Shown here in pieces: positions 20,568-45,730 of a stretch of DNA of 64,000 bases. The translations under genes were made by a program, and so were the position numbers. The DNA is taken from the NCBI GenBank assembly GCA_002025645.1, contig CP018783.1:2170001-2234000 (forward strand), written 5' to 3'. The notes under the pieces were generated by a model, which saw only the letters and a program-made list of their open reading frames with translations, searched no databases and was not told the DNA's origin. The stretch is from Curtobacterium pusillum. Lineage in GTDB: Bacteria > Actinomycetota > Actinomycetes > Actinomycetales > Microbacteriaceae. Each line of letters starts with the position of its first letter. The first letter of the stretch is position 1.

Positions 20568-20627
20568 CCCCCTGACGGCCTGGAGGCACGGTGCCGGCCC
20601 GCACCGTGCCTCCAGGCCGTCAGGGGG
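20568..20627. repeat. Perfect 60-base inverted repeat carrying two CTGGAGGCACGG cores
   Basis: Left arm 20568-20594 and right arm 20601-20627 are 27 bases each and perfectly complementary, with a 6-base loop. The cores are at 20580-20591 and 20604-20615. It starts just after the VOC stop and probably ends that transcript. The second example is at 45685-45730. Confidence 0.92.
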
Positions 20628-20648
20628 TCGCGAACGCGAGCCGCAACG

Positions 20649-20686
20649 GGAACGGCCCCCGCATCCGAGGATGCGGGGGCCGTTCC
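20649..20686 (-). terminator. Terminator of the rpoBC operon
   Basis: Two 18-base arms (20649-20666 and 20669-20686) pair perfectly around a 2-base turn, 14 bases past the rpoC stop. No T-run follows, as is usual in high-GC actinobacteria. Together with the adjacent 60-base repeat it insulates rpoC from the convergent VOC gene. Confidence 0.75.
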
Positions 20687-20700
20687 GGTGGAGCTCAGGC

Positions 20701-23700
20701 TCAGTTGTAGGTGCCCGGCGTGAAGTCGTCCGACGAGAAGCTGTCGAAGTCGACGAAGCTCAGGTCGGCGTCCGAGAACGACGAGTCGTCCGCGAAGATG
20801 CGGTTCGGGTACCGCTCCGCCTTCGCTTCCTCCGTCGCGTTCACGTCCACGTCGCGGTACCGGCTGAGGCCCGTCCCGGCGGGGATGAGCTTACCGATGA
20901 TGACGTTCTCCTTGAGGCCGACGAGGTGGTCCTGCTTGCCCTCCATGGCCGCCTGCGTGAGCACGCGGGTGGTCTCCTGGAAGGAAGCGGCGGACAGCCA
21001 CGACTCGGTCGCGAGGGACGCCTTGGTGATGCCCATGACCTCCTGGCGAGCGGAAGCGGTCTTGCGACCCTCCTGCAGCGCCGCACGGTTGAGCATGTTG
21101 TACCGCGAACGGTCAACGAGCTCACCCGGGAGCAGGTCGGTGTCGCCGTGGTCGACGACGGTGACCTTGCGGAGCATCTGCCGCACGATGACCTCGATGT
21201 GCTTGTCGTGGATCGGCACGCCCTGCGAGCCGTACACGTCCTGCACACCGTTGACGAGGTGCTTCTGGACTTCGCGGACACCCTTGACGCGGAGGACTTC
21301 CTTCGGGTCGACGGTGCCGGCGATGAACTGCTCGCCGAGCTCGACGTGCTGGCCGTCCTCGATGAGGAGCGTCGCACGCTTGAGCACCGGGTAGATGAAC
21401 GGCTCGTCACCGTTGTCCGGCGTCAGGATGATGCGACGACCCTTGTCGGTGTCCTCGATCGTGGCGCGGCCGGGGGCCTCGGCGATCGGGGACGCACCCT
21501 TGGGGGTACGCGCCTCGAACAGCTCGGTGACACGCGGCAGACCCTGCGTGATGTCGTCGGCCGAAGCCGAACCACCCGTGTGGAAGGTACGCATCGTCAG
21601 CTGGGTACCGGGCTCACCGATGGACTGGGCGGCGATGATGCCGACCGCCTCGCCGATGTCGACGAGGTTGCCCGTGGCGAGCGAACGGCCGTAGCACTTC
21701 GCGCAGACACCGACGGCCGACTCGCAGGTCAGGACCGAGCGCACCTTGATGCTCTCGACACTGGCTGCCAGCAGCTTGTCGATCAGGACGTCACCGACGT
21801 CCTCACGAGCCTCGGCGACGACCGTGCCCTTCGCGTCCACGGCCTCGGTGGCCAGGGTGCGGGAGTACACGGTGTTCTCGACGCGCGGGTCGCGGACCAG
21901 CTTGCCGTCGGCACCCACGGTCGCGATCGGGAGCTCGAGGCCCCGCGTCGTGCCGCAGTCGTCCTCGCGGATGATGACGTCCTGCGAGACGTCCACGAGA
22001 CGACGGGTGAGGTACCCGGAGTCCGCGGTACGGAGCGCGGTGTCGGCAAGACCCTTGCGAGCACCGTGCGTGGCGATGAAGTACTCCGCCACGGTCAGGC
22101 CCTCGCGGTACGAGTTGATGATCGGGCGGGCGATGATCTCGCCCTTCGGGTTGTTCACCAGACCACGCATACCGGCGATGTTGCGGACCTGGAGCCAGTT
22201 ACCACGAGCACCCGACGACACCATGCGGTTGATGGTGTTGTCGACGGGGAAGTTGTCGCGCATCTCCTGCGCGATCTCGTTCGTGGCTTCCGTCCAGATC
22301 TTGATCAGGTCGGCGCGACGCTCGGCGTCGGTGATCAGACCCTTGTCGAACTCGCCCTGCACCTTGGCTGCCTGGACCTCGTAGCCCGCGATGATCTCCT
22401 TCTTGCGAGGAGGCGTCACGACGTCCGAGAGCGCGACGGTCACACCGGAGCGCGTGCCCCAGTAGAAGCCGGCGTCCTTGATCCGGTCCAGCGCGGCGGC
22501 CGTCTCGGTCTTGGAGTAGCGCTCGGCGAGGTCGTTGACGATCGCGGAGAGCACGCCCTTGTCGGTGACCTTCTGGACGAACGGGTAGTTCGCCGGGAGG
22601 GTCTCGTTGAAGAGCGCACGACCGAGGGTCGTCTCGAGCAGGACGGGCTCGCCCTGCACGTAGCCCTCCGGTGCCTCGCCCTCGGCGAACCACACGTCGG
22701 ACATGCGGATCTTGACCAGCGCGTTGAGGTGCAGCGTGCCCTGGTCCTTCGCGAGGATGGCCTCGGCGACGGACGAGAACGCACGGCCCTCACCCACGGC
22801 GCCCTCGCGGACGGTCGTGAGGTGGTGCAGACCGATGATCATGTCCTGTGCGGGCAGGGTCACCGGGCGGCCGTCGGACGGCTTCAGGATGTTGTTCGAG
22901 GCGAGCATCAGGATGCGGGCCTCGGCCTGGGCCTCCACCGACAGCGGCAGGTGCACGGCCATCTGGTCACCGTCGAAGTCCGCGTTGAACGCAGCACACA
23001 CGAGCGGGTGGAGCTGGATGGCCTTGCCCTCGACGAGCTGCGGCTCGAACGCCTGGATGCCCAGACGGTGCAGCGTCGGCGCACGGTTCAGCAGCACGGG
23101 GCGCTCGCGGATGATCTCCTCGAGCACGTCCCACACCTGCGGACGCGAACGCTCGACCATGCGCTTCGCCGACTTGATGTTCTGCGCGTGCGACAGGTCG
23201 ATGAGGCGCTTGATGACGAACGGCTTGAAGAGCTCCAGCGCCATCTGCTTGGGCAGACCGCACTGGTGCAGCTTCAGCTGCGGGCCGACGATGATGACCG
23301 AACGGCCCGAGTAGTCGACGCGCTTGCCGAGCAGGTTCTGGCGGAAACGACCCTGCTTCCCCTTGAGCATGTCGCTCAGGGACTTCAGAGCGCGGTTGCC
23401 GGTACCCGTGACCGGACGACCACGACGACCGTTGTCGAACAGCGCGTCGACCGCTTCCTGCAGCATGCGCTTCTCGTTGTTCACGATGATCTCGGGGGCA
23501 CCGAGGTCGAGCAGGCGGCGGAGACGGTTGTTGCGGTTGATCACACGACGGTAGAGGTCGTTGAGGTCCGACGTGGCGAAGCGGCCACCGTCGAGCTGCA
23601 CCATCGGGCGGAGCTCCGGCGGGATGACCGGCACGACGTCGAGCACCATCGCGGCCGGCGAGTTGCCGGTGGCGAGGAAGGAGCTGACGACGCGCAGACG

Positions 23701-45016: not shown

Positions 45017-45045
45017 TTGGGAATGGTTGATGCGTCAACTAAAGT
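45017..45045 (+). promoter_or_regulatory. Promoter with internal palindrome for the esterase gene
   Basis: TTGGGA (45017-45022), a 17-base spacer and TAAAGT (45040-45045) lie 7 bases before the ATG, so the mRNA should be leaderless. The spacer contains the perfect inverted repeat GTTGA-TGCG-TCAAC (45026-45039), a likely repressor site. Confidence 0.6.
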
Positions 45046-45052
45046 CGTGCAC

Positions 45053-45670
45053 ATGATCGATCGCGAAGTCGTCCAGTGGACCCGTGACCCCTCCGAGCGG
45101 TCGGGCACGCCACTCCTCGTGACCATGCACGGGGTGGGGTCGAACGAGCGCGACCTGCTCGGACTCGCGCCCGCACTGCCGTCGTCGTGGACCCTGGCGT
45201 CGCTGCGTGCGCCGATGCCGTGGGGGCAGGGGTTCAGCTGGTACCCGCTCGGGACGCCCGGCTCCCCCGCGCTCGAGCCGGTCGACGAGTCGGTGTCCGG
45301 GGTGCTCGACTGGATCGACTCCGTCGCCGCCGACCACCCGCGGATCGGGCTGCTCGGGTTCTCGCAGGGTGGCTCGATGGCCCTGCAGCTGCTGCGCGCA
45401 CGGCCGTCGGGGTTCGCCTTCGCGGTGTCCCTGTCGGGCTTCGTCGTGCCGAGCGTCACCGATGGTCGGGACACCGCCGTGGAGCAGGTCCGGCCGCGGG
45501 TGTTCCTCGGGCACGGCGACCTCGACCCGGTGATCCCGGCCGAGGCCACCGCCCGGACGCAGGCGTGGGCCGCCGCGCACACCGCCGTGACGGACCGCAC
45601 CTACGAGGGGCTGCCGCACGCGGTGTCCGCCGCGGAGTTGGCGGACGTGGCCGCGTTCATCGGCGACTGA
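45053..45670 (+). CDS. Phospholipase/carboxylesterase family hydrolase
   Basis: A 205-residue alpha/beta hydrolase of the EstB/YpfH type. The catalytic triad is readable: Ser in LLGFSQGGSMAL, Asp in FLGHGDLDPVIP and His in EGLPHAVSAAE. The oxyanion region is VTMHGVGSNERD. No signal peptide, so it acts in the cytoplasm on small esters. The ATG has no ribosome site but a promoter -10 seven bases upstream. It ends in a perfect palindrome shared with the convergent padR gene. Confidence 0.9.
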   Translation: MIDREVVQWTRDPSERSGTPLLVTMHGVGSNERDLLGLAPALPSSWTLASLRAPMPWGQGFSWYPLGTPGSPALEPVDESVSGVLDWIDSVAADHPRIGLLGFSQGGSMALQLLRARPSGFAFAVSLSGFVVPSVTDGRDTAVEQVRPRVFLGHGDLDPVIPAEATARTQAWAAAHTAVTDRTYEGLPHAVSAAELADVAAFIGD

Positions 45671-45684
45671 CGGACTGCACACGA

Positions 45685-45730
45685 ACGGACTGGAGGCGCG
45701 GTGCCAGCTGGCACCGCGCCTCCAGTCCGT
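45685..45730. repeat. Perfect 46-base palindrome carrying two CTGGAGGCGCGG cores
   Basis: Bases 45685-45707 and 45708-45730 are exact reverse complements with no loop. Cores are at 45690-45701 and 45714-45725. It lies between the convergent esterase and padR stops, 10 bases before the padR stop, and probably works as a two-way terminator. Confidence 0.92.

What the first reader, a model, noticed from the sequence alone, without database searches (positions are those of the whole stretch)
20568..45730. Dispersed CTGGAGGCRCGG element forming perfect palindromes between convergent genes
Two intergenic sites (20568-20627 and 45685-45730) are perfect inverted repeats with 27-base and 23-base arms, each built on the same core CTGGAGGCRCGG followed by TGC. 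Both sit between convergent genes. Eight exact cores at six loci are present in the window (5818, 20580, 20604, 30434, 32800, 45690, 45714, 57454). A rough estimate assuming 70% GC gives about 0.1 expected by chance in 64 kb on both strands. The shared sequence extends through the arms, so these look like copies of one element and not independent terminators.
Basis: partly seen in the sequence, partly recalled or inferred. Interest (0 to 1): 0.75.

Follow-up and report, generated by a model that had tools for sequence, protein, structure and literature searches.

The report
Likely DNA-uptake tag of Curtobacterium
A 12-letter DNA word occurs 597 times in this Curtobacterium genome, singly inside and between genes and as mirror-image pairs just after gene ends; it is likely a self-recognition tag for taking up DNA, a device reported so far in only two families of unrelated bacteria.

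Summary
The core CTGGAGGCRCGG occurs 8 times in the window (0.11 expected) and 597 times in the genome (reversed control 23); none was found in the 280 kb sampled of the second contig. With its two variable positions opened, the motif occurs 449-859 times in 58 of 60 Curtobacterium genomes (292 and 58 in the other two). About 30% of sampled copies are single sites inside genes, about twelve times what synonymous-codon shuffles give, and at 8 coding sites tested the core was better conserved than matched controls. Paired copies form predicted hairpins a median 22 nt after stop codons; none of 55 classified paired cores lay between divergent genes. Two species sampled deeply prefer different letters at the two variable positions, and single copies inside genes follow the same preference as the intergenic ones. 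This fits neither a terminator-only nor a REP reading well. It resembles the DNA uptake sequences of Neisseriaceae and Pasteurellaceae. The genome encodes ComEA-ComEC, and the window holds a type IV pilus cluster with PilT. Best reading: an uptake signal whose inverted pairs double as terminators. Uptake, receptor and termination are untested; a chromosome-organising binding site is the main rival.

The parts
20567..20628 (.). Inverted pair of cores (CTGGAGGCACGG at 20580 + and 20604 -), 28-base perfect arms, between a glyoxalase-family gene and rpoC, 4 nt after a stop codon
   Evidence: RNA fold -73.9 kcal/mol, z -10.5
45685..45730 (.). Inverted pair of cores (CTGGAGGCGCGG at 45690 + and 45714 -), 23-base perfect arms, between an esterase-family and a PadR-family gene
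   Evidence: RNA fold -50.2 kcal/mol, z -7.9; orthologous palindromes with changes on both arms in other species
5818..5829 (+). Single core inside a coding region (gene 5590-6198 -)
   Evidence: same 11 bases in four of five relatives and one change in the fifth, within very variable DNA
30434..30445 (+). Single core inside a histidine-kinase-family gene (30037-31260 -)
   Evidence: identical in two of five relatives, one change in two, missing in one
32800..32811 (-). Single core, intergenic
   Evidence: found at the same place in two of five relatives, one of them with the other allowed R base
57454..57465 (+). Single core, intergenic, 6 nt past the stop of 57472-58353 (-)
   Evidence: core found in three of five relatives, one change in one, absent in one
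37886..37896 (+). Variant core CTGGAGGCGCG inside a gene (37238-38872 +)
   Evidence: gap-free alignment, identical in four of five relatives, one change (CTGGAGGCCCG) in the fifth
43692..43702 (+). Variant core CGGGAGGCGCG in the 3' part of a DEAD-box helicase-family gene (42404-44011 +)
   Evidence: 27 rows aligned: own and 26 Curtobacterium-type loci; GGAGGC kept in all but three
43979..43989 (-). Variant core CGGGAGGCACG near the end of the same helicase-family gene
17232..18902 (-). PilB-like pilus ATPase
   Evidence: best NCBIfam match TIGR02538 type_IV_pilB, 623 bits, below its 675.65 cut-off; PF00437 over cut-off
15584..17215 (-). PilT/PilU-family retraction ATPase
   Evidence: TIGR01420 461 bits, cut-off 319.1; full or partial matches in 59 of 60 genus genomes
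14361..15584 (-). PilC/GspF-like pilus assembly protein
   Evidence: NF052607 380 bits, below cut-off 700
13723..14166 (-). Pilin-like protein, probable major pilin
   Evidence: PF07963 N_methyl and TIGR02532 over cut-off
12266..13624 (-). Pilin-like protein, possible minor pilin
   Evidence: PF07963 and TIGR02532 over cut-off
8915..9748 (-). Prepilin peptidase
   Evidence: PF06750 and PF01478 over cut-off
7849..8901 (-). PilM
   Evidence: TIGR01175 156 bits, cut-off 133; PF11104
6387..7100 (-). PilO-like protein
   Evidence: PF04350 35.9 bits, cut-off 22

Best explanation
The repeated word CTGGAGGCRCGG is likely a DNA uptake sequence: a short double-stranded mark that would be recognised by the cell's type IV pilus and competence machinery so that it preferentially takes up DNA of its own kind. 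Shown here: hundreds of copies; none in the sampled part of the second contig; copies in both orientations inside and between genes; enrichment in coding regions beyond what protein sequence and codon use explain; conservation above matched controls at the coding sites tested; species-specific letters at two positions shared by coding singles and intergenic sites; a pilus cluster with PilT and a ComEA-ComEC pair in the genome. Inferred: a surface receptor, not identified, binds the mark; the pilus draws the DNA in; ComEA and ComEC pass a strand into the cell, which recombines with the chromosome; because marked fragments enter more often, mutations that create the mark accumulate where they do least harm, in intergenic DNA and variable protein stretches. 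Also inferred: two marks lying head to head after a stop codon make a long hairpin that is kept because it ends or protects transcripts. A shift in receptor preference would shift the mark across the genome and so give dialects.
For: Number: 597 exact cores against 23 reversed; generic GGMCDGGAGGCNCG 449-859 in 58 of 60 genus genomes, controls 1-13. Both strands equally used: 300 and 297. Absent from 280 kb of the 567-kb contig C2, against 157 generic in 764 kb of C1. Coding: 36 exact against a synonymous-shuffle mean of 3.0 (maximum 6 of 60), 50 generic against 5.5 (maximum 10). Conservation: 0.94 against 0.81 in matched controls, 0 of 5000 draws as high. Dialects: in G000 and G007 coding singles differ in the same way as intergenic sites at both variable positions (Fisher p 3e-4 and 2e-7 coding; 9e-13 and 1e-20 intergenic). 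Spacing is more even than random: variance/mean 0.74 over 38 and 0.53 over 24 blocks of 20 kb. Pairs sit just after stop codons, as DUS pairs do (PMC3630211 section 11). Machinery. No match in viral contigs to GGMCTGGAGGCRCGGTGC nor to the 45690 palindrome in phage records. A second genus, inferred to be Frigoribacterium, has its own GGAGGCGCGG form, mostly single and enriched in coding DNA, and the same pilus cluster beside rpoC.
Against: No uptake or transformation data exist here; ComEA, ComEC and pili are also found in bacteria not known to be transformable. Motif number does not follow PilT strictly: G059 has 641 generic motifs but only a weak PilT match, and G055 has PilT but 58 motifs. 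Density is lower than in Neisseria (about 1900 in 2.2-2.3 Mb, PMC3630211). The pilin and minor-pilin block is deeply polymorphic but does not track dialect in six genomes, so no receptor candidate emerges. Most pairs share one fixed 12-nt spacer (81 of 95 paired generic sites in G000), and single sites keep weak distal letters at pair-like distances, which would also suit a dimeric binding protein or decayed pairs. One of eight tested coding sites (17061) is less conserved than its controls. Absence from C2 could also mean that C2 arrived recently.
Confidence: 0.58

Rival explanations
1. The mark is the binding site of a lineage-specific chromosome-organising, segregation or regulatory protein, perhaps a dimer that binds pairs strongly and singles with a degenerate second half.
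For: Mostly fixed 12-nt spacer in pairs; weak distal conservation beside singles; fairly even spread; restriction to the chromosome; dialects would follow changes in the protein.
Against: No such protein is known to me for these genera and none was searched for. It does not by itself explain why the pairs sit just after stop codons, and coding singles in variable protein stretches plus terminator-type pairs plus dialects are together the published pattern of DUS and USS.
Confidence: 0.18
2. REP- or MITE-like mobile palindromes: a copied hairpin element spread through the chromosome and singles are decayed copies.
For: Singles share weak distal letters with pairs at similar spacing; pairs are high-copy, intergenic and absent from C2.
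Against: No Y1_Tnp (RAYT-type, PF01797) match in the genome, though the same search rings in 5 of 14 control genomes. Coding copies look like letter changes at shared places in most alignments, are conserved above controls, and follow the dialect of their species. In G108 most copies are single and many are coding.
Confidence: 0.11
3. Terminators only: a favoured hairpin sequence at gene ends, with chance single copies elsewhere.
For: Pairs lie a median 22 nt after stop codons, fold very stably and change on both arms together in 13 chosen orthologous palindromes.
Against: Coding copies exceed synonymous shuffles about twelvefold and lie in both orientations to the gene (19 sense, 32 antisense in G000). 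The three singles folded are not unusually stable. No T-run terminator was found in window 40000-50000 by a consensus scan. A terminator does not need to keep GGAGGC.
Confidence: 0.08

Closest known systems
DNA uptake sequence (DUS) of Neisseriaceae
   Same: Short word in hundreds to thousands of copies, both strands, single in genes and as inverted pairs associated with terminators, dialects by species around a constant inner core (PMC3630211, passages and section 11), with a type IV pilus system in the genome.
   Different: Different phylum, a Gram-positive lineage, GC-rich unrelated word, lower density, mostly fixed pair spacing of 12 nt; receptor unknown; uptake not tested.
Uptake signal sequence (USS) of Pasteurellaceae
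   Same: 9-nt core with weaker discontinuous extension to about 32 nt (PMC12616744 passages); here too a core with weaker letters at +13 to +19 and beyond; inverted repeats at terminators.
   Different: Unrelated word, no AT-rich extension, pilus cluster of the PilB/PilT type seen here; uptake not tested.
REP sequences with RAYT transposases
   Same: High-copy intergenic palindromes, single and paired (family features recalled, not from a call).
   Different: No PF01797 match in the genome; many coding copies; conservation and dialects of single sites.
Chi-type recombination sites
   Same: Over-represented, fairly evenly spread short motif.
   Different: Chi acts in one orientation (recalled); here no orientation preference on the chromosome sample (26 and 26 singles) and inverted pairs at gene ends.

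Membership tests
DNA uptake sequence (DUS/USS) | Short word strongly over-represented genome-wide on both strands | tested here: met
   597 against 23 reversed, 300/297 by strand
DNA uptake sequence (DUS/USS) | Copies inside genes kept at DNA level | tested here: met
   36 against 3.0 in synonymous shuffles; conserved above controls at 8 sites, 7 of them above their matched mean
DNA uptake sequence (DUS/USS) | Inverted pairs at gene ends, terminator-like | tested here: met
   100 exact pairs, placement, folds; termination itself not tested
DNA uptake sequence (DUS/USS) | Lineage dialects with a constant inner core | tested here: met
   80-480 kb samples of few species
DNA uptake sequence (DUS/USS) | Uptake and pilus machinery in the genome | tested here: met
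   ComEA, ComEC (some scores under the NCBIfam cut-offs), PilB, PilT, PilC, pilins
DNA uptake sequence (DUS/USS) | Word increases DNA uptake or transformation | not testable with these tools
   Needs an experiment
DNA uptake sequence (DUS/USS) | Sequence-specific surface receptor | tested here: inconclusive
   Divergent pilin block does not track dialect in six genomes; other proteins not examined
REP/RAYT | Y1-type transposase in the genome | tested here: not met
   PF01797: no match at E 0.001 in the own genome
REP/RAYT | Copies arise by insertion | tested here: inconclusive
   Most coding sites look like substitutions, some lie in indels; no close-strain test
Intrinsic terminator | Stable GC-rich hairpin after a stop codon | tested here: met
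   for the paired form only
Intrinsic terminator | T-run after the stem | tested here: not met
   None found in window 40000-50000, which holds one pair; no T-run in the pair alignments of the G000 sample
Chi/KOPS | Orientation bias along the replichores | tested here: inconclusive
   26 plus and 26 minus singles in the sample; origin and terminus were not located, GC skew is weak

The most novel reading that the evidence does not exclude
Actinomycetota evolved DNA uptake sequences independently: Curtobacterium (CGGMC-N-GGAGGC-N-CG), Frigoribacterium (GGAGGCGCGG) and perhaps a third genus form a dialect family around GGAGGC, read by a type IV pilus system in a Gram-positive lineage, with inverted pairs recruited as terminators.
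Probability: 0.5. Interest if true: 0.92.

Novelty: new variant of a known kind. Interest (0 to 1): 0.82.

Why it matters
[quoted passage not shown] A third, independent case in a Gram-positive lineage with its own dialects would show that this kind of bacterial mate choice can arise repeatedly. It would make the old question of how uptake preference and genome motifs evolve together testable across the 60 and more sequenced species of one genus, and would predict natural transformation in a common plant-surface and leaf-litter genus.

Tried and rejected
Terminator-only and REP readings were tested and lowered. The exact core alone suggested large copy-number differences within the genus (28-516 in 23 members besides the own genome); the generic motif showed that this is mostly dialect change at a fairly constant number. 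The idea that the divergent pilin block carries a dialect-setting receptor was not supported. Rfam gave no match at its gathering scores in the window.

Limits of single tests. My gene finder is home-made; its first version miscalled the gene before 20567 and was replaced. Distances are counted per core, so an exact pair counts twice. In one search, of 30 fetched loci 10 could not be placed and 1 (L104) was misplaced; of the 19 readable rows 11 went into and 8 were left out (no palindrome: L090, L098, L099; another palindrome: L085; decayed or partly N: L091, L101, L109; and L087, which duplicates the G048 type); two rows (G045, G041) were added. So searches show how the hairpin changes where it exists, not how often it persists. 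In one search, 8 of 9 real and 381 of 420 control positions gave a result. One search printed only the first 1500 characters of its sister-genus table.

Papers: PMC3630211, passages and section 11; PMC12616744, PMC6370729 and PMC13020248, passages; PMC2346458, abstract and outline; all others search listings only. I found no report of an uptake sequence in Actinomycetota in searches of an open-access library without preprints; most subscription papers are not in it.
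Full report
WHAT IS THERE. The eight cores and two palindromes are as described. The genome has a 3.97-Mb contig C1 with the window and a 567-kb contig C2, presumably a megaplasmid. CTGGAGGCRCGG occurs 300 times forward and 297 reverse, against 11 and 12 for the reversed pattern. One hundred places hold two cores head to head within 30 nt.

WHERE IT LIES. In 804 kb (window, 35 stretches of C1 and 2 of C2) there were 111 exact cores: 74 intergenic, 36 coding, 1 at an edge. 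Allowing two mismatches in the partner, 59 were paired and 52 single. Of the paired, 57 were intergenic: 20 between convergent, 35 between tandem genes, 2 unclassified at a stretch end, none between divergent genes; the sample holds 103 convergent, 470 tandem and 108 divergent neighbour gaps. Paired cores lie a median 22 nt from neighbouring stop codons (75 distances) and 171 nt from start codons (35 distances; counted per core). None occurs in 280 kb of C2.

SIGNAL INSIDE GENES. Sixty shuffles of synonymous codons within 719 predicted genes gave a mean of 3.0 exact cores (maximum 6) against 36, and 5.5 generic cores (maximum 10) against 50. Aligned with five relatives, cores are kept in stretches rich in changes and indels. 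For the 8 coding sites that could be scored, mean core identity was 0.94 against 0.81 (sd 0.04) for controls with similar flanks; 0 of 5000 draws reached it; seven sites exceed their matched mean and 17061 does not. The mean profile dips at exactly the two variable core positions (0.70 and 0.60, against 0.87-0.98 at the others). The antisense orientation is in excess (50 against 28 in G000 plus G007, p 0.017), which somewhat weakens a purely orientation-free reading; a favoured orientation in reading frames is also reported for known uptake sequences (PMC2346458 abstract).

DIALECTS. At the 45690 locus other species have CGGGAGGCACGG, CAGGAGGCCCGG, CGGGAGGCTCCC and others, or another palindrome, or none. 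In 13 chosen palindromes 93.4% of pair cells are standard pairs against a shuffled mean of 83.5%, and 7 of 21 pairs have changes on both sides, the two variable positions among them. Opening those positions gives 449-859 copies in 58 of 60 genomes of the genus (own included), 292 in G066 and 58 in G055, controls 1-13. In G007, T at position 2 is 9 of 57 intergenic and 4 of 27 coding sites, against 79 of 108 and 29 of 51 in G000; a purine at position 9 is 19 of 57 and 8 of 27, against 106 of 108 and 45 of 51. A hairpin function alone would not impose the letters of the hairpins on single sites inside genes; a common reader of double-stranded DNA would.

BEYOND THE GENUS. The exact core is at most 28 in 195 genomes of other genera of the family. 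GGAGGCNCGG is above its control in three of 84 genera examined: Curtobacterium (1013 against 218 in G000), g50 (1492 against 307) and, more weakly, g70 (603 against 295); none of the other 81 exceeded 1.5 times its control. In 200 kb of the g50 genome G108, GGAGGCGC[GT]G occurs 131 times, 82 in coding regions against a mean of 13.3 (maximum 22) in 30 synonymous shuffles. All five named Frigoribacterium loci carry 3-8 copies in about 8.2 kb, while only two of the other 47 named loci scanned carry two and the rest fewer, so g50 is inferred to be Frigoribacterium. One G108 stretch holds the same pilus cluster beside rpoC. A degenerate scan of viral contigs found nothing, nor did the palindrome find a phage record; two plasmid records hold similar palindromes.

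MACHINERY. The window holds a type IV pilus cluster, and ComEA and ComEC are adjacent near C1 68 kb; several of these score below the strict NCBIfam cut-offs. A PilT match of full or partial length occurs in 59 of 60 genomes; G059 has only a weak one. Motif number does not follow PilT strictly (G059, G055). From PilO to the major pilin the cluster exists in deeply different versions: minor pilins of G000 and G052 are 34-37% identical while their PilB is 99% identical, yet G048 and G052, and G045 and G001, share versions. The versions do not follow dialect, so the receptor is unidentified and may lie elsewhere.

HOW IT MOST LIKELY WORKS. Shown: number, placement, dialects, conservation, machinery. 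Inferred: preferential uptake of marked DNA, accumulation through recombination, and termination by pairs. In Neisseriaceae and Pasteurellaceae up to 37% and 22% of predicted terminators of some species contain the uptake word (PMC13020248 passages). The main rival, a site for a chromosome-organising protein, cannot be excluded by sequence.

Noticed in passing
window 6387-14166 and orthologous stretches of G045, G048, G001, G052, G041 and L270: The pilus block from PilO to the major pilin exists in deeply divergent versions between closely related species while flanking PilC, PilT, PilB and RpoC are conserved, and some species share a version; it looks like exchange of a whole cassette.
   Followed up: partly
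L265-L274 (genome G108, inferred Frigoribacterium): A related word GGAGGCGC[GT]G occurs 131 times in 200 kb, mostly single, with a strong coding excess.
   Followed up: partly
L066-L079 (contig C2 of the window's genome): The second contig has its own strongly repeated word, CTATGCGCGG/TCCGCGCATA (44 copies of the 10-mer in 280 kb against 0.2 expected); function unknown.
   Followed up: no
L237 1501-1550 (Microbacterium sediminis plasmid NZ_CP038257.1): A Curtobacterium-type inverted pair (CGGGAGGCACGG dialect) after a gene on a plasmid of another genus, possibly acquired DNA.
   Followed up: no
L106, L109 and the G045 stretch at the locus of window 45690: A second long hairpin (GAGCAG...GGTCGGGTC type) lies beside or near the pair in some species; 7 matches to one form of it in 764 kb of the own chromosome.
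   Followed up: no
window 20649-20686: A separate GC-rich hairpin lies between the 20567 pair and the rpoC stop; similar ones were listed in G010 and G013.
   Followed up: no
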